A DNA stretch of 64,000 nucleotides from Puccinia triticina (Eukaryota > Basidiomycota > Pucciniomycetes > Pucciniales > Pucciniaceae): assembly GCF_026914185.1 (NCBI RefSeq), contig NC_070570.1:2418001-2482000 (forward strand), given 5' to 3'. The translations under genes and the position numbers were made by a program. Positions 49,188-62,534 of this stretch are shown one piece after another (position 1 is the first letter of the stretch; each line of letters begins with the position of its first letter). The notes under the pieces were generated by a model. It was given only the letters and a program-made list of their open reading frames with translations, searched no databases and was not told the origin of the DNA.

Positions 49188-51929
49188 TTGCATGAAACTG
49201 TAGTACTGAATGGTCTTAACAAGAAGTACGTGAGAAATGGTGTTCCGGAAAAAAGAGATCTCCCCAAATCTGAAACACCCAAGCCTCCCACAGGAGATCC
49301 CCCTGTGAAGAGGACTGCAATCCCTGAATGCTACAATTGCGGGGAAAAGGGCCACAAAAAACCTGAATGTCCTAATCCACGCAAAAGGATTAACAATGTG
49401 GAAGTAGAAGAGGACTGTGACAGTGAAGAAGATACTCAATCTCAATTTGAGGTTGTTACTACTGAACATGCAGATGGAGACCAGCCTAGGATACACGTAA
49501 TCCAAGCTGATATTGGTGATGAATTGTCCATTAATTCCATTCACGGAGACTCCAATTTACCTCAAAAATGGGACTCTTCTATGAAAGTTGGCCATGTTTC
49601 TGACGCCAAATTACTCACCAACAAAACTGAAGCAGGGATGAGTTATACTATGGGTAAAACCAGCTATACCACGGTCTTGTTCCGTGACTCAGAGTTGAGA
49701 GCTCTGCTAGATATAGGCGCCTTCTGCTCCTGTGTCAGTAGTACCTTCTTGGATGATTGTTATCCAGAATGGGGAAATCACTTGCTCCCCATGCCAAAAG
49801 CCAAGTTCAGTAGCTGCAATTCTGCTATGAAACCAGTAGGAGTAGTAGTTATGCCACTAATCTTCCCGCACTCCAAGGGCTCCCTTAGACTAAATGTAGA
49901 ATTTGTTGTTTTACAAGATGCTGTGTGTAATTACTTGATCTTAGGTAATGATACATTCTGCATGTATGGAATAGACATATTTCAAAGTAAAGACAGATTC
50001 TACACCATAGGTGGAGACTGGAAAAGAAAGTTCCAGATTTGCAATATTAATATTAAGCTTCCAAACCAGCTTAATACTAATAACGTGAAGTACCAAGAGG
50101 AACTACACTCTTTTAAAGAAGAGTACTTGTCCCAAGCTGCTGTTAGTGAAATCCTGACGGAAGACCAAAAACTTGATGTTCTGGAATCTTGTTTCAAGCA
50201 CAAAGAAGCCTTTTGTACTACTGAAGAACCCATTGGTAATATTAAGGGTCACGACATGAAACTAGAACTCACAGTGAGCAAACCTTATCCGCCTCAGCTA
50301 CGGAGACCCCCCTATCCTTCAAGCCCCAAGTCCAGAGAAGCTCTTGAAACTCACATCAAAGAGCTCCAGGAATTAGGTGTCTTGAGGAAAGTAGGACATA
50401 ATGAGCAAGTTGATGTTACAACACCTGTAATAATTGCGTGGCATAATGAGAAATCTAGAATGGTTGGAGACTTCCGTGCTCTTAATAATTACACTAGACC
50501 TGACTACTATCCCATTCCCCGCATAGACCACTCCTTGCACAACCTGTCCAAAGCTAAGTACATCACCACTATGGATGTGCTTAAAGGTTTCCACCAGATC
50601 CCTATAGACCCAGAAAGCAGAAAATACCTCAGAATTATCTGCCACCTAGGAATCTTTGAATACCTAAGAATGCCCTTTGGTATCAAAAATGCGCCCTCAC
50701 ATTTCCAAAGGATGATGGACTCTGTATTCGGATCCTTCATCAGACAAAGTTGGATGATGGTGTACATAGATGAAATTATAATTTACTCTGATGATTGGGA
50801 AACTCATTTGGAGAAAATTAACCTAGTGCTGTCCACGGCCATAGAAGCAGGTTTAAAGATGTCCATTAAAAAGTGTAACTTTGGATATGGGGAACTTAAG
50901 GCTTTAGGACGTGTAGTTTCTGGACTATCCTTAGCCATTGATCAGAACAGAGTAGCTTCTGTCTTACTTAACTCTATGCCACAGAATAAATTAGAAATGA
51001 TGTCATTTCTGGGTTTCTGCAGCTACTACCGCCAACATGTACCAAGCTTTGCCAATGTGAGCAAAAGTCTTTATGCACTATGTAATAATGACACCATCTT
51101 TGAAATGACATACGACAGAGTACAAGATTACGAAGAGCTTGAAAGGCTTGTCACATCCGCCCCCGTACTGTCCCAACCAGATTACAACAAACCCTTTATA
51201 TTGTATATTGATGCTTGTTTAGGTGGTCTGGGTGCTGCATTACACCAAGAATTTGTCATAGATGATAAACCTGTTGAGAAACCTGTTCTGTTTATATCAA
51301 GACAAATAAAAAACTCAGAAAAGAGATATGGAGCCAGTCAAATGGAATGCCTTGCACTGGTGTGGGCCTTAGAAAAACTTCATTACTACTTAGAGGGCTC
51401 TAACTTCATAGTGGTCACTGATCGTACCGCTGTAAGGACCCTCATGAATATGAAAACTCCTAATAGACATATGCTTAGATTGCAAATTGCAATAAAACAG
51501 TACAGAGGACATATGACTATCATCCATAAGGCAGGAGCCAAACATAAGAATGCGGATGGTCTAAGTAGATGGGCTTTGCCAAATAAACCAGATAATCCAG
51601 CGTATGACCCTGAAGATGAAGACATTTTTCCAATCTTAGGGATACATGCCTGTGACTTAGATAATGCTTTCTATGACTTGGTTCAGAAAAGCTATGACGA
51701 GAACAGTGAACTCCTCAAATTGGTTGAAATCTTGAGAATTGACAGTAGCCCACCAGAACTGATTGCTAGCTTACCAGAAAATTTAGCCCAACACTATAAA
51801 CTGGGAAAATTCACGCTGCTAGATGGACTTCTTTACTTCAAACATAAACACTCTAGCGTTTTGGTACTAAGTGATAAAGATCAGATCAAAGATATCCTCA
51901 AGGAATGCCATGATAATGGAATGCCATGA
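49188..51929 (+). pseudogene. Ty3 A zinc knuckle, protease, RT and RNase H
   Basis: In order: zinc knuckle CYNCGEKGHKKPEC (49331-49372), an aspartic protease site LLDIGAFCS (about 49706), RT with YPIPRIDHSLHNLSKAKYIT and MPFGIKNAPSHFQRMMDSVF, then RNase H ([31 protein letters not shown]). The RT active site reads YIDE (50763-50774) instead of YIDD, losing a metal-binding Asp. The frame ends early because a 16-bp tandem duplication at 51902-51933 shifts it. There is no ATG near the start because the frame is the far side of the Helitron-split gag. Confidence 0.93.
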
Positions 51930-51933
51930 TAAT
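51902..51933. repeat. 16-bp tandem duplication
   Basis: GGAATGCCATGATAAT occurs twice in direct succession, adding 16 bp and shifting the frame between RNase H and integrase. Element B has a single copy. Confidence 0.95.
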
Positions 51934-53286
51934 GTCAATACTGGCCACTTCTCTGAAGAGAGAACAGTGGAAAGAATCAAACAAACTGCGTGGTGGATTG
52001 ACTGGAAGGAACAAGTACATGATTACATCCAATCCTGTGATGCATGCCAGAAAGGGAACAAGCAGACTGGTAAAAGATTTGGACTACTCCAGAAAATTGC
52101 AGAACCCACAGAAAAATGGGAAATAGTAAACATGGATTTTGTTACAGGACTGCCCCCAGGAGGACCCTATTCTTACAACTCAGTCCTTGTTGTTGTAGAC
52201 AGGTTTTCCAAGAGGGCCAGATTCATCCCTAATCACAAAGATGACACAGCTATGGAAGTAGCTATGCTATTTTGGAACAGAATCATGGCTGACGTAGGAA
52301 TTCCAAAGATTATCATTAGTGACAGAGATCCTAAATTCACTTCAGAATTTTGGAGGAACCTTCACGACATGCTAGGCACTAAATTGGCATTCTCTACAGC
52401 TTATCACCCCCAGACGGATGGATTAGCAGAGAGAATGATCCAGACTCTAGAGGATATGTTGCACAGATTCTGCTCCTTTGGTTTTGAATTTAAAAATCAT
52501 GATGGATACACTCACGATTGGGTAAGCCTTTTACCAGCCCTTGAAATTGCATACAATAGTAGCAAACACTCCTCTACTAAAGTAGCCCCATATGTACTAG
52601 AAAGAGGATGGATCCCATGTATGCCCAAAGACAATCTTAACAACAAATTACCTCATCTGCACCCTACCGCTCTTGACTTCAAAAAGATGCTAGACTCAAC
52701 TCACCAACATGCCAGGAAATGTGTAGATGATGCTGTTGAATATAACAAAGGAAGATGGGATAAAAGCCATAAAGAATCAGAGTTCAAAATTGGAGAAAAA
52801 GTTCTATTATCCATGGTAAATTTTAATTATTTAGGTGGTAGCAGAAAACTTAAGCCTCCATTCATAGGACCATTCACCATTAAGCAATTGCATGGTAAAA
52901 ACGCAGTGGAAGTCATTCTTAGTGAAGAACTATCTAGGAAGCATCCTGTCTTTCCTGTAAGCCTGATCAAACCTTACAAAGTCAGGCCAGAAGAAGAATT
53001 AGCCCCCCCACAACCTGTCCCCATAGAAGAAACTCCACCCTCAGGACAGTTGAGAGTACATAAAATCTTGAAAGACAAGAAAGAAAGAATACAAGGAAAA
53101 GACACCAGACTCTACTTGGTCAGATATAAAAACTTATCCGCAGATAGAGATGAATGGCTACCAGAAAGTAATATACCAGATGGACCCATTCAACTAAGAA
53201 ACTACAGAGCAAGTAAGAGATCAACCTGGGATGGCCAAAAAATTTTTTCTAGACCGTTCTTTTTTCTGAGCAGAGACTCATCTTAG
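51918..53286 (+). pseudogene. Ty3 A integrase with chromodomain
   Basis: Resumes after the duplication: zinc finger (H in [21 protein letters not shown]), catalytic Asp in NMDFVTGLP and [14 protein letters not shown], Glu in [14 protein letters not shown], a GPF-type C-terminal domain ([20 protein letters not shown]), then a chromodomain-like [20 protein letters not shown]. The chromodomain places A and B in the chromovirus branch of Ty3 elements. It stops at 53286, just before the polypurine tract. Confidence 0.92.
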
Positions 53287-55178: not shown

Positions 55179-55484
55179 TATGGAGCTCCGCCCGGTGCTA
55201 GGCCGGCGGCAGCGCTGGGAGGGGAAAAGATGCCTGGTGGCTGCCCTCACGGATTGGTCCAGATGAGTCGTAGAGAGTCGACGTGATAGCTGTGGGGAAA
55301 GTGGTTTTGAGATTTGTTTTTCGCCGGGGTTGAGATCCTCGGCGGCGGTTTGTTTTGTCGGAATTCTGGAAGGGACTGGATTAGGATTCTTGAGGGTCCT
55401 GATCTTGAAAGTCTTGATCTTGAGGAGAGCGCCGGTGAGATTCTTGAACTGAAAATTCCTTTGGCTACCGGTTTGCCCACCACA
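55179..55484 (-). repeat. Ty3 C 3' LTR
   Basis: 306 bp, TATGGAGCTCC to CCACCACA on the plus strand (TGTGGTGGG to GGAGCTCCATA on the minus strand). Confidence 0.93.
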
Positions 55485-55543
55485 TCCCACCACCACTTAC
55501 AGTCTGTCCCTAGACTGCACACCAAAAACTGTGTCAAACCGCG

Positions 55544-55660
55544 CTGAAAGAAGGAAACAAGGGGGGCCCGCAGGTGGCTCACGAGAGTGGCAAATGTAGA
55601 GCTTACGACAATTTTTCGGTAGTAGTTACCCGAGGTGCATACAAAGGAGGGGGAACTTAC
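55544..55660 (-). other. intron-like segment 1 of Ty3 C (117 nt)
   Basis: Minus strand GTAAGT to CTTTCTTTCAG-type acceptor (TTCCTTCTTTCAG), directly after the last integrase codons; the GTAAGT itself supplies the TAA stop of integrase. Homologous to the segments at 58815, 59214 and 61802. Confidence 0.6.
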
Positions 55661-56889
55661 TTTGAGTCCTCAATGCCCCCGCGAGGAAAATACTCCTTGA
55701 CTTGATCCGCCGCGAACCGGCGTTTGAGTTCCGTACCATCAAGCTCGGCGAGGACGTAGGAGCCGCTTTGAACCTGCGTGACGACCAAATAGGGCCCGTT
55801 CCACTTGTGGGCAAAGAGCTGGCCCCATTGGACCTCCAGTGATCTGTTGTAGGCGAGGACTAGAGCGCCGGGCGAGAGCGGGTCGCGCAGTCGATCCGCA
55901 TTCCGATCTTGCCAGTACCTGATAGCTTCAGTCTGGGATTTCATCATCCGGTCGTGAGCGATTTGTCGAGATTCTTCACTGCGTTCGAGCTGCTGCGACC
56001 GCGCCACCAGCAGGTCGGAAGTATTGCGGACCAAGTCCCAATCAACACCTAGGAACGACTCGATGTCCAGATCGATGGGTAAAGCGGCGCGCTGGCCAAA
56101 CACCAATTCGTACGGGGAATAGCCCGTCGTGCGTTTGGTCGAGATCCGATCAGCGAAAAGGACTAGGGGCAGGAACTTTCTACAGTTCTTGCCCGATTCA
56201 CCCGCGAGTTTGACAAGAGCTGCCTTCAGTGGTGCGTGCCCACGCTCGACCATTCCCTGAGCCTCCGGATAATATGGCGTCGAGACCCTGTGTTGCCCTG
56301 GCAGAGACCTCAGCATCTCCGCCAAGGCACCACCAAACTCCGAACCTCCATCCGTCGAATAAGCCCGCGCTAAGCCGTAGCGCATCGTCCAATGTTCTTG
56401 CAAGAAAGCCGCGACCGCCTCAGAGGTGATGTTGTTGAGGAATTTCGCCTCCACCCAACCCAAAAAGTCGTCGCGGGCTACAATAAGATATTTTGCTCCG
56501 CTGGCTTTGATGTGAACAACGTCCATTGAGACCCGTCCAAACAGAGTATCCTCGCCAGTTGGATCGCGCACCTCCTGTGGTCGCCGTAGATTCCGCTTCT
56601 GGCAGGCCTCACAACTGCGGCACCAGGATTGCACCGCCTTCTTGAGGGACGGCCACCAAAAGCGGTCTGCGACGCGACGATAAGTTTCTGCGGTGCCACG
56701 ATGGCCCAGGTCTTTGTGCAAGCGACATAGAATCTCTTCCTGTTTACTCGGCACTGTGACCACAATTCGCGGGAGAGGGCTACCTCTCTTCATGAGGCGC
56801 CCCGCCTGAACAAAGAACTCCGATGCCTTCCTCTTCAATGCCCGAAACGCCAAAGCATCCATGCCTCCAGGCCGCGTCAACGTCGTGAG
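55657..56889 (-). CDS. Ty3 C integrase
   Basis: Minus strand: zinc finger (HKDLGHRGTAET, CRSCEACQKRN), Asp in SMDVVHIKASG and AYSTDGGSEFGGAL, Glu in QGMVERGHAPLKAAL, then a C-terminal GPY-like region (HKWNGPYLVVTQVQSGSYVL). No chromodomain. It ends GGIEDSK at 55657. Upstream the same frame is RNase H, separated only by a TAA at 56892-56890. The catalytic triad is complete. Confidence 0.93.
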   Translation of the reverse strand, partial: LTTLTRPGGMDALAFRALKRKASEFFVQAGRLMKRGSPLPRIVVTVPSKQEEILCRLHKDLGHRGTAETYRRVADRFWWPSLKKAVQSWCRSCEACQKRNLRRPQEVRDPTGEDTLFGRVSMDVVHIKASGAKYLIVARDDFLGWVEAKFLNNITSEAVAAFLQEHWTMRYGLARAYSTDGGSEFGGALAEMLRSLPGQHRVSTPYYPEAQGMVERGHAPLKAALVKLAGESGKNCRKFLPLVLFADRISTKRTTGYSPYELVFGQRAALPIDLDIESFLGVDWDLVRNTSDLLVARSQQLERSEESRQIAHDRMMKSQTEAIRYWQDRNADRLRDPLSPGALVLAYNRSLEVQWGQLFAHKWNGPYLVVTQVQSGSYVLAELDGTELKRRFAADQVKEYFPRGGIEDSK

Positions 56890-57471
56890 TTATTCCTCCA
56901 GTTGCCGCCAGAATCCCTCCTGGAAACCGGTGTACGCGGGAGCTGCCGCGCCCGATAATGCAGACAAGGGCCTAATGAGAGATGCTTCTTCGTCAAAGTC
57001 TGACTCCGGTAGATCTGACTCGTTGTCGCCTTGCGGTCTGCGGGAAAGTCCGTCTGGCATCGTGAAGGATTTGCCTGGCCGGTGGGTGATGTCGAAAGAA
57101 AACAAGTGGATGAAGGCAACCCATTGTGTCATCGGAGCATTGGGTAGACTTGGCGCGTTGATCATCTGAACAAGGGACTGGGCGTCGACAATGAGCTCGA
57201 AATGTTGCCCCCACAGTACGATCTGGAGCTTCTTGAGGATTCTTGCTACCCCACACAACTCGAGTTTGGGCTGCGAGTACCAAGACTCAACGTCGGAGAA
57301 TAACAAAGACTCGTAAAGCGCGGGTTGGTCGAGGCCGTTTGAGTCTGCTTGAGTAAGGACCGCCCCAGCGGCGTGAAAACTGGAATCTACGGCGAGTTTC
57401 AGTTGCCCCGCATTCGGCCCATAGTCCACCTTGACCAGGACAATATCTTCGCCCACGAGACTTTTTAGTTG
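56890..57471 (-). CDS. Ty3 C RNase H
   Basis: Minus strand: LKLAVDSSFHAAGAVLTQ, PALYESLLFSDVESWYSQPK, CGVARILKKLQIVLWGQHFE and ITHRPGKSFTMPDGLSRR, a Ty3 RNase H. In frame with RT (separated by TGA at 57474-57472) and with integrase (TAA at 56892-56890). Degrades the RNA strand of the replication hybrid. Confidence 0.9.
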   Translation of the reverse strand, partial: QLKSLVGEDIVLVKVDYGPNAGQLKLAVDSSFHAAGAVLTQADSNGLDQPALYESLLFSDVESWYSQPKLELCGVARILKKLQIVLWGQHFELIVDAQSLVQMINAPSLPNAPMTQWVAFIHLFSFDITHRPGKSFTMPDGLSRRPQGDNESDLPESDFDEEASLIRPLSALSGAAAPAYTGFQEGFWRQLEE

Positions 57472-59397
57472 TCAAAAGGCCGTTTCACAATCCTCGGTCC
57501 AGACAAATGGAACGTCCTTCCGAGTCAGTCGCCGAAGCGGAATACAGATCTGCGAAAGAGACGGAATGAATATCCGCACGTACACAACCACGCTGAGAAA
57601 ACCGCGAACTTTGGTCGCATCTAAAGGCGTTGGCCAGCTCCGAATTTTGTTGATTTTGGTCCTTGCCATCCGTCGGCCTTCCTTGCACACAATGTGGCCC
57701 ACGATCTCCAATGCGGGAACACAAGCTGCCAGCTTGGACGCTGAAACAGTCAACCCCGCCTCCTCCATCCGAAACAAAATCCTTTCGAGGGTGGCGGCGT
57801 ATTCCCAAATGAACCTCCTGACTCTGGGATGCCAAGACAGGACCTCTCCATTGTAATCTGAGATTGGGCCCTTGATGCCTCCATCATCAATGAACACTCC
57901 CGCGTGGTCGGGGATCTCGTCCTGCAGGACCCACATCATCTGCGCCTGGTAGACGGCGACAGAATTAGTGGCGCCCTGTGGGAGCCGGGTCAGCTGGAAT
58001 CTACCTAGAGGGGTATCGAACATGGTCAGTGGTCGCGAGATGTGATCCAAGGCGCGTTCATCATAACCGCCAAGAATGTCTCCCAGCCAATAGCAGGCAC
58101 GACCCGAGAATGATTCCACGAAGTCTTCGGTAGCCGGCGGAATTCCCGCATCCTTCACTGTAACCTTATTCAGAGGCTGAAGGTCGTGGACGATTCGGAG
58201 TTTGCCGTTGCTCTTCAGGACGCAGAAGACCGGCGAGGAGTACGACGAAATTGATTGTTCGTACAACCCATTCCGCACTCGCTCCCTCAGGATCCTCGTG
58301 TATTCGTCTAGCTTAGCCGCGGGTATGGGAATTTTCTTCTTTTGCCACGGCTCATGCTCGATTACTGGGATGATATACGGCATTCCGTAGGACTCTTTCA
58401 GCAGCCCTCGCTCAGATTTGTCGAAGGCAATGGCCTGATTCCGCTCGGCCAACACGTTCTTGATGACATTCAACTCGTCGGGCCAGAGCCAGCCTTCCGG
58501 ACCGAAATTTACCACGGTAAGGCGCTCTTTAGTGACGCGCCCTTTTGGGGTGAAGGGGGCCGTCAAAGAGCGGGCCAAAGGACGGTAAGGGTCCCTAGAG
58601 AGAGGCGGACGTTGGAGGGGGGGATTTAGCCCTTGTGGCATTGGCTGATTGACAGGCTTGATTTTCTGGGAGACTGGCTTGTATTTTGCTGCGAACACCG
58701 CTAATTCACCGGCTTTCCAGGCGCTTAAAAGCGCGGATTGAGATTGAGCACCAAGACCACTCTGGAGCAAGCTCCAAGTCCGTAGTTCCAAAAAATCCTT
58801 GAAAGGGACCTTATCTGCGTACGAGAACCCAGACGGCAAAGAGCGGCTCACGATAGTGGCACAAGGTAGAGCTTTGATGATATTTGGAGCATCACGCCCG
58901 GAGGTGCACAATTGGAGAGAACTTACTTTTAGTCTCCGATCCCTCCGCAGAACACCTTCTTCCACCTCATCCACCCAAGCCTCTATTTTCGACGAAAATA
59001 GTTTCACCTCATTCCGGAGGATCATTAGTTTATCCTCGTCGCGGAGGCTCAGAAGTTTAGCCTCATTGCGGAGGGTCTTTGCAGACATGCCTAGTTTAGC
59101 CTCATTGTGGAGGGTTGCACAGGACGAAACTAGTTTATTCTCATCGCAGAGAGTTGATTCAGGTGATAGTTTAGTCTTGTTACGGAGACGAGATTCGAAT
59201 GGCAAAAATCTTCCTAAAGCGGAAGAAAGGAGAGATCCCGAGGGGCTGCTCACAAGCGTGGCACGTGATAGTGTTTTCGATGAAGCGGTAGAATCTACCC
59301 TGGGGTGCATACTTGGATGGGGACTTACTTTGACACTTTGTGCCCCTGCCGGACACCCAATATTCTGGTCGTCGCGAACCGGTCTTCCACCTTTCAA
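57472..59397 (-). CDS. Ty3 C reverse transcriptase with N-terminal repeat region
   Basis: Minus strand: the first roughly 200 residues are not RT. They hold a series of seven-residue repeats (LRNKTKL, LCDENKL, LHNEAKL, LRNEAKL, LRDEDKL, LRNEVKL; about 58985-59205) flanked by two homologous intron-like segments. RT follows with YEQSISSYSSPVFCVLKSNG, LRIVHDLQPLNKVTV, FQLTRLPQGATNSVAVYQAQ and active site VFIDDGG. It ends at TGA 57474-57472, beyond which the same frame is RNase H. The frame is different from the protease ORF, so expression needs splicing or frameshifting. Confidence 0.9.
   Translation of the reverse strand: MKGGRPVRDDQNIGCPAGAQSVKVSPHPSMHPRVDSTASSKTLSRATLVSSPSGSLLSSALGRFLPFESRLRNKTKLSPESTLCDENKLVSSCATLHNEAKLGMSAKTLRNEAKLLSLRDEDKLMILRNEVKLFSSKIEAWVDEVEEGVLRRDRRLKVSSLQLCTSGRDAPNIIKALPCATIVSRSLPSGFSYADKVPFKDFLELRTWSLLQSGLGAQSQSALLSAWKAGELAVFAAKYKPVSQKIKPVNQPMPQGLNPPLQRPPLSRDPYRPLARSLTAPFTPKGRVTKERLTVVNFGPEGWLWPDELNVIKNVLAERNQAIAFDKSERGLLKESYGMPYIIPVIEHEPWQKKKIPIPAAKLDEYTRILRERVRNGLYEQSISSYSSPVFCVLKSNGKLRIVHDLQPLNKVTVKDAGIPPATEDFVESFSGRACYWLGDILGGYDERALDHISRPLTMFDTPLGRFQLTRLPQGATNSVAVYQAQMMWVLQDEIPDHAGVFIDDGGIKGPISDYNGEVLSWHPRVRRFIWEYAATLERILFRMEEAGLTVSASKLAACVPALEIVGHIVCKEGRRMARTKINKIRSWPTPLDATKVRGFLSVVVYVRIFIPSLSQICIPLRRLTRKDVPFVWTEDCETAF
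58815..58926 (-). other. intron-like segment 2 of Ty3 C (112 nt)
   Basis: GTAAGT at 58926 to CGTACGCAG at 58815; open in the pol frame (LKVSSLQLC...). Same internal landmarks (GTGCACCTCC, GCCACTATCGTGAGCCGC) as the other three; the weakest pyrimidine tract of the set. Confidence 0.5.
59214..59328 (-). other. intron-like segment 3 of Ty3 C (115 nt)
   Basis: GTAAGT at 59328 to CCTTTCTTCCGCTTTAG at 59214; open in the pol frame. Landmarks GTATGCACCCCAGGGT and GCCACGCTTGTGAGCAGC. Confidence 0.6.
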
Positions 59398-59648
59398 GGA
59401 ATTGGAAGAAACAAGCTGATTGAAATGGAGAACCAGGGAGTTGACAGAAATGAAACCGATGTTTTTAGGATTTTCGATATTTTCTTGATGTTTTTGGTCT
59501 TGCCAATTTTTGATTGAAACTTCTGAGGAAACTGAGGGTAATAAAGCCGAGTGAGGGGAGGAATGATGGGTCGATGGGCCAGAAGCCGATCCGCCGGTGA
59601 AAAGTCAAGACCCTTGATTAAGACTGCCGGCAAAAGGATCGGCTCCAA

Positions 59649-60530
59649 TCATAAAAAATGCTTATCCTCATGCGAGTCCTTTTTGAGGCGCCCGCAATGG
59701 ACCAAGACGCCCTTCCGGCCATGAGCGGGGAACTCTCGCTCCCATCTTCCTTTATCAACCGGACAGAGAGTAACTTCAATATTCCGCCCGTCCGAGTCAG
59801 GCAGGATGATCCGCTCGCCAGCCGTCGGAGAAAACATAAGAGTGGCTCTGAAATCCATCAAAAACGGGCGGCCTAAGATGAACGGCCCGTCCGCCCGCGT
59901 AATCCAGAAATGACAGGTGCCCACAATGGAACGACCAACCCGTATGGGCACATCCTTGGCGATACCGATAAGCTCACATGCTTGGTTGTTTATCCCGTAA
60001 ACTGCCGAGCTGAAGTTGACCCTTGGCGTGAGATTCAACTTGACTGCCATGGAATCAGAGATCAGATTGAGTTGCGAGCCCAAATCAACCAAAGGAGAAG
60101 AGATTGCCTCCTCGTCCCCTACGCTACAGTTGAGATAGCCAAGGGGGCAGGAGTACAAATTTGGATCAAAAACTCCGCTCGAGTCAATTCCTTCGGCTAG
60201 GGTTCCCAAGTTTACCTTCAAATCTTCGCGACCGACCTCCACGCGGCGACGTGACACCCACTTCTTTACCTCGTCTGAGACGGCTGGTGACACAGAACAG
60301 ATCTCCCCGACAGTTGTAGTCACGGGGAGCTCAAAAATTTTCTTAACCAGCCCTTCAACGGCGTCCGGATGGTCGCGAGAAACCTTGCGCTCGAACCTGA
60401 CCTTAGACTGGGACCCAGGAACTTTTGGGGGGGTAGCTGGACGCGCTACGGACTCCTTAGGTGGAGAAAGCTCCGGAGCCGGCTTGTTCATGATTCTATC
60501 GAAAAGCTCCGGCTCGCTATCTTCTTGACG
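59649..60530 (-). CDS. Ty3 C aspartic protease region
   Basis: Minus strand, in frame with gag and separated from it by TGA at 60533-60531. It contains a retropepsin active site SPLVDLGSQLNLISD (D-L-G-S) and a typical ILGRPFLMDF block. It ends at TGA 59651-59649. The next 250 nt hold a third frame (to 59394), then the RT frame, so protease and RT are not contiguous in sequence. Length, about 280 residues, includes an N-terminal linker. Confidence 0.85.
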   Translation of the reverse strand, partial: RQEDSEPELFDRIMNKPAPELSPPKESVARPATPPKVPGSQSKVRFERKVSRDHPDAVEGLVKKIFELPVTTTVGEICSVSPAVSDEVKKWVSRRRVEVGREDLKVNLGTLAEGIDSSGVFDPNLYSCPLGYLNCSVGDEEAISSPLVDLGSQLNLISDSMAVKLNLTPRVNFSSAVYGINNQACELIGIAKDVPIRVGRSIVGTCHFWITRADGPFILGRPFLMDFRATLMFSPTAGERIILPDSDGRNIEVTLCPVDKGRWEREFPAHGRKGVLVHCGRLKKDSHEDKHFL

Positions 60531-61790
60531 TCAAGAGGGGTCCGAGGTACTGACTGGCGCCTTTCGCAACGGTCTTTTTGCCTGGGAAACTGGAACCCGC
60601 GGTGCCTTAAAAGGCCGCGCCTCTTCGTGGCGCTTCCTTGCCGCCGGGTCAGACTCATAGGCTGCTGTGAACGACTGGGAAGAGACAGCGGGGGGGTACC
60701 AGGGGTTTAACGACCCACAGCTCGCCTTGTATTCTGTAGCGGTGGCGCTCGAAGTCTGTCGAGTTGGAGTATTGGGCCTTGGCGCAGATGAAGGCTGGTT
60801 TGGCTGAAAGGAAGCCACGATGTGCCTAATCGGCCGACTACGATCGAACGGTATAAGAGCCCCGTTTGGAAGGAAAAAATTTGTTCCCCTTTGCTCAACC
60901 AGACCCGCCTCCTTGTCCTTTGCTAGTTCCTGACATCTTGAGGTCCCGTGATTCTCGCGGTGACAATAATAACACACAAGTGGCGGCCGGTCCGTCGACG
61001 CCGAAGCCTTTGAGGGAATAGCCGCTATTTTCTGATCAATCTTGTGTTCAAACGCCTCCAACATTTGTGAAAGCTCATCCATATTTGGGGCAGGTTTCAA
61101 AGGCATCTGAGTTTCCATGGGACGACGATCCTCGCCCATCTTCTTCATGACGGAGTTCCCATCCTGAAACAAGGGACCCGCAACGAGCTGTCCACTCCTC
61201 GACTCCTCAAACGTGAGTGCTGTTTGTTCTTTCATCACCCCATCCACGGCGTCCTCGAGGATCTTGAAAGTCGGCAGCTTGAAACGATGGTCTAGGGTAG
61301 TCACCATTGTACCGTTGCGTATCAGTTTCTTCCTGATCTTGTCCTGGGCAGTGGTCGAAAACGCTTGATAATATGAATTGCAAATCTCCTCCACCAAATC
61401 GATGTGTGCTTTCGAAAGCAGGTATGACTGTATCGGCTCCCAGGACTGACGGAACTTCTGATAATCCGTTGCTGACGCCACGCCACCCTTGGAAGCCCAA
61501 TCTTCGACCAGAGAAGTCAGATCCCGCGTAGTGAACCTTGCGGTATCCACCTGACCCCAGTAAGCGATCATCGCGGCCTTGAGCTTCGGCCAATCGGGAG
61601 GACTGAACCCCTCAAGCGTCTTGAGGATGTCCAGCAACTCGTCGGTCGCAAGAAACAGCCGGATTTGCTTGGCCATGTCGAGCTTGGTAGCATCGTCCAG
61701 ACCCGCCACCATTTTGTAGGTTTCAATGAACCTTTCGACCTTGGTCCCATCAAAGCACAGCCGCTTGTTTGGCGATTTGATCTTGACCAT
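60531..61790 (-). CDS. Ty3 C gag
   Basis: Begins ATG at 61790, 12 nt after the acceptor of intron-like segment 4. 419 residues: capsid-like core (FIETYKMVAGLDDATKLDMA, LKAAMIAYWGQVDT, SWEPIQSYLLSKAHIDLVEE), a coiled segment (MDELSQMLEAFEHKIDQKIA), a zinc knuckle CYYCHRENHGTSRC (C-x2-C-x4-H-x4-C) and a Pro/Ser/basic tail. The terminal TGA is followed by C and by an open frame into protease. Forms the particle and binds RNA. Confidence 0.9.
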   Translation of the reverse strand: MVKIKSPNKRLCFDGTKVERFIETYKMVAGLDDATKLDMAKQIRLFLATDELLDILKTLEGFSPPDWPKLKAAMIAYWGQVDTARFTTRDLTSLVEDWASKGGVASATDYQKFRQSWEPIQSYLLSKAHIDLVEEICNSYYQAFSTTAQDKIRKKLIRNGTMVTTLDHRFKLPTFKILEDAVDGVMKEQTALTFEESRSGQLVAGPLFQDGNSVMKKMGEDRRPMETQMPLKPAPNMDELSQMLEAFEHKIDQKIAAIPSKASASTDRPPLVCYYCHRENHGTSRCQELAKDKEAGLVEQRGTNFFLPNGALIPFDRSRPIRHIVASFQPNQPSSAPRPNTPTRQTSSATATEYKASCGSLNPWYPPAVSSQSFTAAYESDPAARKRHEEARPFKAPRVPVSQAKRPLRKAPVSTSDPS

Positions 61791-61801
61791 TACGGCGGAT
61801 T

Positions 61802-61906
61802 CTAGAAGAGAAATTTGATGGACGATGGGGTGCGGCTCACAGCAGTGGCGGTGATGCTTACAAATAGCGTAGAAAACCCTGGAGGTGCACTATGGAGGGG
61901 ACTTAC
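61802..61906 (-). other. intron-like segment 4 of Ty3 C (105 nt, 5' leader)
   Basis: GTAAGT at 61906 to TTTCTCTTCTAG at 61802, immediately upstream of the gag ATG. Good donor, pyrimidine tract and acceptor. Homologous to the three other segments. Confidence 0.65.
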
Positions 61907-62179
61907 TTTGACCTCTCCTATGCCCCGCAACTGAACACTAAAAGAAAGCGATAAAGAGAAGAAATTTATGTCGATCTTGATCCTGAAACAAGAATCAAAC
62001 AAGAGTGAGATCAAGGGTCAACACCTGGCAAGCGCCGCAAATGATTGGATGGATAAAACTTGAGGAGTCGAAAGAACCAAACTAGGTTCAGTAGAGATTC
62101 GCGGAGATTGGATCGCTGATAGCAGAAAAAAAGAAAAGAAAGAAATATAACCGCCAGAAGCCTCAAAACCACAGTCCGA

Positions 62180-62226
62180 GACTGTAAATCTTGAGGTTGC
62201 TGGTTCGATCCCGGCTCGGGGGACCA
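62180..62226 (-). other. extended tRNA-Tyr primer-binding site
   Basis: On the plus strand 47 nt match the 3' part of a mature tRNA-Tyr(GUA): anticodon region ACTGTAAATCTTG, variable loop, T arm GCTGG-TTCGATC-CCGGC, acceptor strand CTCGGGGGA and an encoded CCA next to the LTR (2 nt spacing). A canonical primer site would be only the last 18 nt (62209-62226). No 5' half of a tRNA is present. Confidence 0.85.
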
Positions 62227-62228
62227 AA

Positions 62229-62534
62229 TATGGAGCTCCGCCCGGTGCTAGGCCGGCGGCAGCGCTGGGAGGGGAAAAGATGCCTGGTGGCTGCCCTCAC
62301 GGATTGGTCCAGATGAGTCGTAGAGAGTCGAAGTGATAGCTGTGGGGAAAGTGGTTTTGAGATTTGTTTTTCGCCGGGGTTGAGATCCTCGGCGGCGGTT
62401 TGTTTTGTCGGAATTCTGGAAGGGACTGGATTAGGATTCTTGAGGGTCCTGATCTTGAAAGTCTTGATCTTGAGGAGAGCGCCGGTGAGATTCTTGAACT
62501 GAAAATTCCTTTGGCTACCGGTTTGCCCACCACA
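62229..62534 (-). repeat. Ty3 C 5' LTR
   Basis: 306 bp, identical to the 3' LTR except one base seen (GTCGAAGTG here, GTCGACGTG there). Confidence 0.93.

What the first reader, a model, noticed from the sequence alone, without database searches (positions are those of the whole stretch)
55544..61906. Four homologous intron-like segments inside one Ty3 retrotransposon
Segments of 117, 112, 115 and 105 nt (55660-55544, 58926-58815, 59328-59214, 61906-61802, minus strand) each start AAAGTAAGT, share the internal landmarks GTGCACC-CC-GGGT and GCCACT-GTGAGC, and each has an AG acceptor 37-40 nt after GTGAGC, three of them with strong pyrimidine tracts. They sit at gene boundaries: just before the gag ATG, two between protease and RT, and one immediately after integrase, where GTAAGT provides the stop codon. 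Splicing segments 2 and 3 removes 227 nt, which changes phase by the same amount as the offset between the protease and RT frames. Introns in an element that replicates through RNA should be lost unless splicing is partial. This suggests retrovirus-like subgenomic mRNAs built from copies of one intron, or introner-like insertions.
Basis: partly seen in the sequence, partly recalled or inferred. Interest (0 to 1): 0.9.

Follow-up and report, generated by a model that had tools for sequence, protein, structure and literature searches.

The report
Repeated intron-like modules in fungal retrotransposon
A jumping gene of a rust-like fungus carries four or five copies of one conserved RNA module that looks like a weak intron, two of them inside its protein-coding part, which may let it keep some transcripts whole and splice others.

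Summary
They are one module, conserved in 21 copies of a large Ty3-type family (GTAAGT in 82 of 85 modules, AG in 84 of 85); three copies carry a fifth.

Segments 1 (before the gag ATG) and 4 (after the pol stop) are non-coding. Segments 2 and 3 lie inside the pol frame, open through both in 15 of 21 copies. There the codons are frozen at nucleotide level (codon identity 0.92 against 0.40 downstream). Segments 1, 2 and 4 keep a drifting pyrimidine tract plus AG far above shuffles; segment 3 does not.

A -1 frameshift or reinitiation explains the protease-RT offset.

Best reading: mostly retained, weakly spliced homologous introns. Splicing itself is unproven: no canonical branch motif (0 of 84), no intron-lost copy found by three limited patterns, no RNA data. 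Rival: an unspliced cis-acting RNA element.

The parts
62229..62534 (-). 5' LTR (306 bp)
   Evidence: 305 of 306 identical to the 3' LTR
62152..62226 (-). primer binding site and extended stretch complementary to a tRNA with CCA end and apparent GTA (Tyr) anticodon
   Evidence: reverse complement; cmscan tRNA hit below the gathering score; kept in 15 of 16 rows of the leader alignment
61802..61906 (-). module I1, 5' UTR intron-like segment (GTAAGT...TAG), 105 nt
60531..61790 (-). gag reading frame; ATG 11 nt after the I1 acceptor; this copy has an in-frame TGA at its end
59649..60530 (-). protease part of the gag-pro frame, ending at the TTTTTTATGA site
   Evidence: called protease by position and by eye, no Pfam hit
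59649..59658 (-). TTTTTTATGA: gag-pro stop (TGA) overlapping an ATG in the pol frame, with a T TTT TTA heptamer in the gag-pro frame
   Evidence: present in 19 of 21 copies
59214..59328 (-). module I2 (115 nt), inside the pol reading frame
58815..58926 (-). module I3 (112 nt), inside the pol reading frame, upstream of RT
55657..59604 (-). pol frame: linker with LRNExKL-type repeats, RT, RNase H, integrase; three pieces in one frame, two in-frame stops in this copy
55544..55660 (-). module I4 (117 nt) after integrase; the TAA inside GTAAGT is the pol stop codon
55500..55517 (-). stem-loop CAGTCT..AGACTG before the polypurine tract
   Evidence: GAGTCT..AGACTC in three copies
55179..55484 (-). 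3' LTR

Best explanation
The element carries four (in some copies five) homologous copies of one splice module: a consensus 5' splice site (GTAAGT), a conserved core of about 75 nt ending in GCCAC-loop-GTGAGC (a possible stem with a bulged A), then a pyrimidine tract and AG. They act as inefficiently spliced, mostly retained introns. Unspliced RNA is the genome and the template for Gag-Pro and, through the TTTTTTATGA site (-1 frameshift or reinitiation), for Pol, which is read straight through modules I2 and I3. Splicing of I1 would only trim the 5' leader just before the gag ATG. Splicing at I2 or I3, or from D2/D3 to the acceptor behind pol, would destroy or delete Pol and leave a Gag-Pro message, so splicing would set the Gag:Pol ratio and separate mRNA from genomic RNA. 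SHOWN: homology, positions, reading frames, nucleotide-level constraint, conservation of donors and acceptors, frame effect of splicing I2. INFERRED: that the sites are spliced at all, their efficiency, which donor joins which acceptor, and the purpose.
For: GTAAGT in 82 of 85 and AG in 84 of 85 modules from 21 copies. In I1, I2 and I4 a pyrimidine tract plus YAG at the right distance in 20/20, 20/21 and 20/20; in representatives under 80% identity 7/7, 10/11 and 9/9 against shuffle means of 0.58, 1.84 and 1.49, with 0 of 300 shuffles reaching the count (repeated with a second seed and with plain shuffles, same outcome). Six copies not used to set that criterion pass it at I4 (6 of 6; their donors were demanded by the search pattern). 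Inside the pol frame the donor Val is GTA in all modules that have Val there (18 in I3, 21 in I2), the next Ser is AGT, GTG AGC is fixed, and the Ala at the I3 acceptor is GCA in 18 of 18, although GTA is 54 of 472 Val, AGT 18 of 410 Ser and GCA 46 of 402 Ala codons downstream; codon identity 0.917 (I3 core) and 0.924 (I2 core) against 0.396, P about 4e-7 and 3e-7. The I2 acceptor A is kept across Leu (TTA, CTA) and Pro (CCA) codons. The first ATG, 10-13 nt after the I1 acceptor, opens gag in 20 of 20 copies. Lengths of 104-125 nt (one damaged I3 of 93) are near or above those of 18 crudely inferred host introns, 46-102 nt.
Against: No CTRAY branch motif 8-60 nt before the acceptor in any of 84 modules, against 6 of 18 crude host introns. 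I3 lacks a pyrimidine tract (2 of 21, no better than shuffles). Six I1 copies have a further CAG 12 nt before the acceptor scored, and two I3 copies one 14 nt before. No intron-lost copy: 0 matches for the I4, I1 and D1-A3 junction patterns, against 40 for an unspliced control pattern that fits I4 and some I2 sites. The first ATG after the I3 acceptor opens the pol frame in only 11 of 21 copies, which speaks against a dedicated spliced pol mRNA. The core is conserved far beyond what splicing needs. No RNA data.
Confidence: 0.55

Rival explanations
1. The module is a cis-acting RNA element that is not spliced: for example a Gag-binding/packaging or nuclear-export signal repeated along the genomic RNA, in which GTAAGT is a U1-like or protein-binding motif and GCCAC-loop-GUGAGC, with its bulged A, is the recognised hairpin.
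For: Core of about 75 nt conserved well beyond splice sites, including GCCAC..GTGAGC in 81 of 85 with variable loop; about 25 nt upstream of the donor is shared too; no branch motif; no intron-lost copies found; I2 and I3 must be retained for Pol.
Against: Does not predict the drifting pyrimidine tract plus AG at I1, I2 and I4, nor the conserved acceptor A inside codons. The hairpin cannot be tested by covariation because its arms hardly vary.
Confidence: 0.3
2. One reading: splicing of segments 2 and 3 joins the protease frame to RT (Ogre-like).
For: The two lengths sum to 2 mod 3, equal to the frame offset, in 15 of 20 copies scored.
Against: Gag-pro stops at TTTTTTATGA upstream of the donor (19 of 21 copies; in six of the 18 copies scored it is the first stop after the gag ATG); the frame read on from the I2 acceptor closes within 15-58 codons in 16 of 18; the pol frame is open through both segments unspliced in 15 of 21.
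Confidence: 0.03
3. Peptide repeats only: I2 and I3 are repeats of a pol linker motif (KVSxxxxCTSGxDAxxxxxLPxATxVS) and the splice look is incidental.
For: The peptide recurs, by eye, in related proteins P0001, P0021, P0026 and P0032; donor-to-GTGAGC spacing is 75 or 72 nt in 20 of 21 I3 modules.
Against: I1 and I4 are non-coding, with indels out of phase, yet keep the same nucleotides; synonymous codons are frozen in I2 and I3.
Confidence: 0.05
4. Introners: copies of a mobile intron that also inserts in host genes.
For: Closely similar intron-like segments in several positions.
Against: The 10 loci checked, of 59 pattern hits, lie behind an integrase of this family; positions are fixed between copies. 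The other hits were not examined.
Confidence: 0.03

Closest known systems
Ogre (plant Ty3/gypsy) intron between gag-pro and RT-RH-INT
   Same: Partly spliced intron-like stretch between protease and RT of a Ty3-type element (PMC6317226, passages seen)
   Different: There splicing joins the two frames; here the frames overlap at TTTTTTATGA, the segments are open in the pol frame, and splicing would break Pol. Four homologous copies here, also outside that region.
BARE1 (Ty1/copia) 104-nt alternatively spliced intron
   Same: Short intron of similar length whose retention gives Gag-Pol and whose removal gives a Gag-only message (PMC3735527, passages seen); closest in proposed logic
   Different: One intron, in a Ty1/copia element of barley, shown by cDNA; here up to five homologous modules, a fungus, no RNA evidence.
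Copia and EVADE subgenomic RNAs
   Same: Splicing to favour Gag: copia, removal of 2.9 kb of pol (PMC3735527, passage); EVADE, functional intron for subgenomic RNA (PMC12786077, passage)
   Different: Here a product that skips pol (D2 or D3 to A4) is only possible, not seen.
Transposon transcripts with stalled spliceosomes in Cryptococcus
   Same: Another basidiomycete in which poorly spliced introns in transposon RNA matter (search listing only; details recalled)
   Different: There a host RNAi trigger; no such evidence here.

Membership tests
Spliceosomal (U2-type) intron | GT donor | tested here: met
   GTAAGT in 82 of 85 modules
Spliceosomal (U2-type) intron | AG acceptor with pyrimidine tract | tested here: met
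   Met for I1 20/20, I2 20/21, I4 20/20; NOT met for I3, 2/21. AG alone in 84 of 85
Spliceosomal (U2-type) intron | branch site | tested here: inconclusive
   CTRAY 0 of 84; a crude host set has it in only 6 of 18
Spliceosomal (U2-type) intron | excised from RNA | not testable with these tools
   No RNA data; no intron-lost genomic copy by three junction patterns
Ogre-type protease-RT intron | removal joins gag-pro frame to RT frame | tested here: not met
   Stop upstream of the donor and closed frame after the acceptor
BARE1-type Gag/Pol splice switch | retention keeps Pol, removal truncates it | tested here: inconclusive
   Frame side met: pol open through I2/I3 in 15 of 21, stop after 15-58 codons in 16 of 18 if I2 is removed. 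That removal happens was not testable
Introner | same intron at several host gene positions | tested here: inconclusive
   10 of 10 checked hits (of 59) lie in the element
Ty3-type LTR retrotransposon | LTRs and RT-RNase H-integrase order | tested here: met
   LTR pair; Pfam RVT_1, RT_RNaseH and Integrase_H2C2 in that order

The most novel reading that the evidence does not exclude
A retrotransposon has multiplied one dual-purpose module, at once protein-coding, possibly hairpin-forming and a weak splice unit with interchangeable donors and acceptors, so that any donor can join any acceptor. This would give a retrovirus-like set of messages from copies of a single intron, kept inefficient by having no good branch site.
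Probability: 0.22. Interest if true: 0.82.

Novelty: new variant of a known kind. Interest (0 to 1): 0.6.

Why it matters
An element that replicates through RNA should lose efficient introns. Here four to five homologous intron-like modules have been kept, two of them inside coding sequence with frozen codons, in a large fungal family; a protein from another rust (P. coronata, P0032) and three proteins of unnamed source seem to keep the same peptide. If they are spliced, this is a clean natural system for how a retroelement holds splicing at partial level and sets Gag:Pol; if not, it is an unknown repeated RNA signal of a Ty3-type element.

Tried and rejected
Hairpin enclosing the donor (G-run before, C-run after GTAAGT): RNAalifold draws it, but shuffled 3' arms pair as well in I1, I2 and I4, and arms swapped between modules do too; in I3 10% of shuffles reach the native mean. 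Dropped.

Acceptor upstream of I1 (TTTTAG/GTTCAG): not an AG at one place in all rows of the leader alignment. Dropped.

Dedicated spliced pol mRNA (D1 to A3): first ATG in the pol frame in 11 of 21 copies. Not favoured.

Rfam: nothing above a gathering score. IMG/VR scan for relatives: none confirmed. A regular expression for the module peptide, run on 91 related proteins of which 44 could be anchored at RT, flagged two, P0001 and P0023; P0021, P0026 and P0032 were judged by eye among the 48 sequences printed.

Weak points of my own tests. In one search the RT query was cut out of frame, so its RT rows for L001-L008 are not used; the integrase rows are, and four of those ten loci are copies already fetched. 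One module hit on the minus strand of L014, a neighbouring element, was dropped (86 hits became 85). The alignment holds 69 of 85 modules: L013, L016, L018, L020, the I4 of L009 and duplicates were left out, and these include the three modules with an altered donor, so its invariant columns are somewhat flattered. One search left out L013 and L016 for I3. The acceptor criterion was set after seeing the alignment and accepts the first or second AG. The junction pattern for I4 fits only part of the family, and no unspliced control was run for the I1 and D1-A3 patterns. The 18 host introns, from six gene loci, were inferred by a crude script.
Full report
Setting. The window is G000:C13:2418001-2482000 of a 122.8-Mb genome in 18 contigs. 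Protein relatives include a Puccinia triticina gene model (P0077) that shares the linker repeats of this element, so wheat leaf rust or near kin is likely; this is inference. The element lies on the minus strand between LTRs at 62534-62229 and 55484-55179, 305 of 306 bases identical. Pfam finds RT, then RNase H, then the integrase zinc-binding domain. Four segment searches, each capped at 40 scored matches, gave 112 clusters in the genome, a lower bound for family size.

Observation. The four segments exist as described. A profile built from them and applied to the window copy and 20 fetched copies finds the modules at fixed places: I1 in 20 of 21, I2 and I3 in 21 of 21, I4 in 20 of 21. L012, L013 and L026 carry a fifth between I2 and I3. 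GTAAGT is exact in 82 of 85, and AG at the expected distance is present in 84 of 85. In an alignment of 69 of the 85 modules 17 columns are invariant, seven of them in AAGTAAG and eight in GCCAC..GTGAGC; the rows left out include the three modules with an altered donor. About 25 nt before the donor is shared as well, so the repeated unit is larger than an intron.

Coding context. Gag and protease share one frame. In 19 of 21 copies a TTTTTTATGA lies at its end, where the TGA closes gag-pro and the ATG lies in the pol frame; in six of 18 copies scored it is the first stop after the gag ATG (L011, L015, L021, L023, L025, L026). The heptamer T TTT TTA is, from recall, the classic -1 frameshift type; frameshift and reinitiation cannot be told apart here. 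From there the pol frame runs through I2, the linker with its LRNExKL-type repeats, I3 and RT. It has no stop from the I2 donor through I3 in 15 of 21 copies; L013, L016 and L018 are frame-disrupted with 10-13 stops, and L017, L025 and L028 have one. In L014, L015, L020, L022 and L026 it stays open for 1,143 or more codons after the I2 acceptor. I2 and I3 are therefore translated in Pol. The first ATG, which opens gag, lies 10-13 nt after the I1 acceptor in 20 of 20 copies. I4 begins at the pol stop, which its own GTAAGT supplies in the window copy.

Constraint. In I2 and I3, four- and six-fold codons with conserved residues (10 each) have mean pairwise codon identity 0.924 and 0.917, against 0.396 over 165 such codons downstream. 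Where the residue is Val at the donor it is always GTA (11% of Val downstream), the next Ser is always AGT (4%), and Ala at the I3 acceptor is always GCA (11%). In I1 and I4, which are not coding and have indels in all phases, the same nucleotides are kept. The module is thus a nucleotide-level signal. The test treats codons as independent, and the copies are related.

Splice-like or not. Downstream of GTGAGC the sequence drifts, but I1, I2 and I4 keep a pyrimidine-rich run and a YAG (20/20, 20/21, 20/20). In representatives under 80% identity the counts are 7/7, 10/11 and 9/9, against shuffle means of 0.58, 1.84 and 1.49, with 0 of 300 shuffles reaching them; I3 has 2/21 and does not exceed chance. 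A repeat with another seed and with plain shuffles gave the same. Six further copies all pass at I4; their donors were demanded by the pattern that found them. Against splicing: no CTRAY in 84 modules, although a crude set of 18 host introns has it in only 6; six I1 and two I3 copies have an extra AG shortly before the one scored; no genomic copy that lost an intron by three junction patterns with up to 3 mismatches, against 40 matches of an unspliced control that fits I4 and some I2 sites; no RNA data. A strong donor, a fair acceptor and no good branch site is what a mostly retained intron would look like; it is also compatible with no splicing.

Consequence of splicing. The I2 donor lies between codons of the pol frame in 16 of 21 copies and the I3 donor in 19 of 21; the acceptors lie one base into a codon where the segment is 115, 112 or 109 nt long, two bases in the 110-nt I2 of L009, L018, L019 and L021. 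Splicing I2 therefore shifts the frame and meets a stop after 15-58 codons in 16 of 18 copies scored; the exceptions are L009 and L018. A Gag-Pro-only product remains possible, as in BARE1, where removal of a 104-nt intron leaves only Gag (PMC3735527, passages). Ogre differs because its intron joins the frames (PMC6317226, passages).

Spread. Pattern hits for the I4 type number 59; the 10 loci fetched all lie directly behind an integrase 79-88% identical to the window's, and four of them are copies fetched before. No host-gene location was seen, but 49 hits were not examined.

Literature. In nine searches of the held library no listed title or abstract start describes repeated homologous introns in an LTR retrotransposon. 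One rust TE survey (PMC12210899, term search in the main text) has no occurrence of intron or splic-. Only listings and passages were seen, and most subscription papers are not held.

Verdict.

Noticed in passing
62152-62226, minus strand: After the 5' LTR about 50-60 nt, not just the usual 10-18 (recalled), are complementary to a tRNA with CCA end and apparent GTA (Tyr) anticodon; kept in 15 of 16 rows of the leader alignment, L027 being diverged (cmscan tRNA hit below the gathering score).
   Followed up: partly
55500-55517, minus strand: Stem-loop CAGTCTAGGGACAGACTG just before the polypurine tract; three copies have GAGTCT..AGACTC, a change on both sides that keeps the pair.
   Followed up: partly
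59649-59658, minus strand: TTTTTTATGA gag-pro/pol overlap with a frameshift-type heptamer, in 19 of 21 copies; L009 and L027 lack the exact string.
   Followed up: partly
L019 and L021, module I2: The I2 module of these copies resembles the I3 type (CTSGRDAPN peptide), which hints at copying of modules within an element.
   Followed up: no
55179-62534: The window copy has near-identical LTRs yet stops inside gag-pro and pol, as if a young insertion arrived already damaged or was mutated fast.
   Followed up: no
49188-53286, plus strand: A second Ty3-like element whose C-terminus looks, by eye, like a chromodomain; no module core motif there.
   Followed up: no
linker between I2 and I3, window 58927-59213: Variable number of LRNExKL-type peptide repeats, so the I2-I3 spacing differs between copies.
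   Followed up: no
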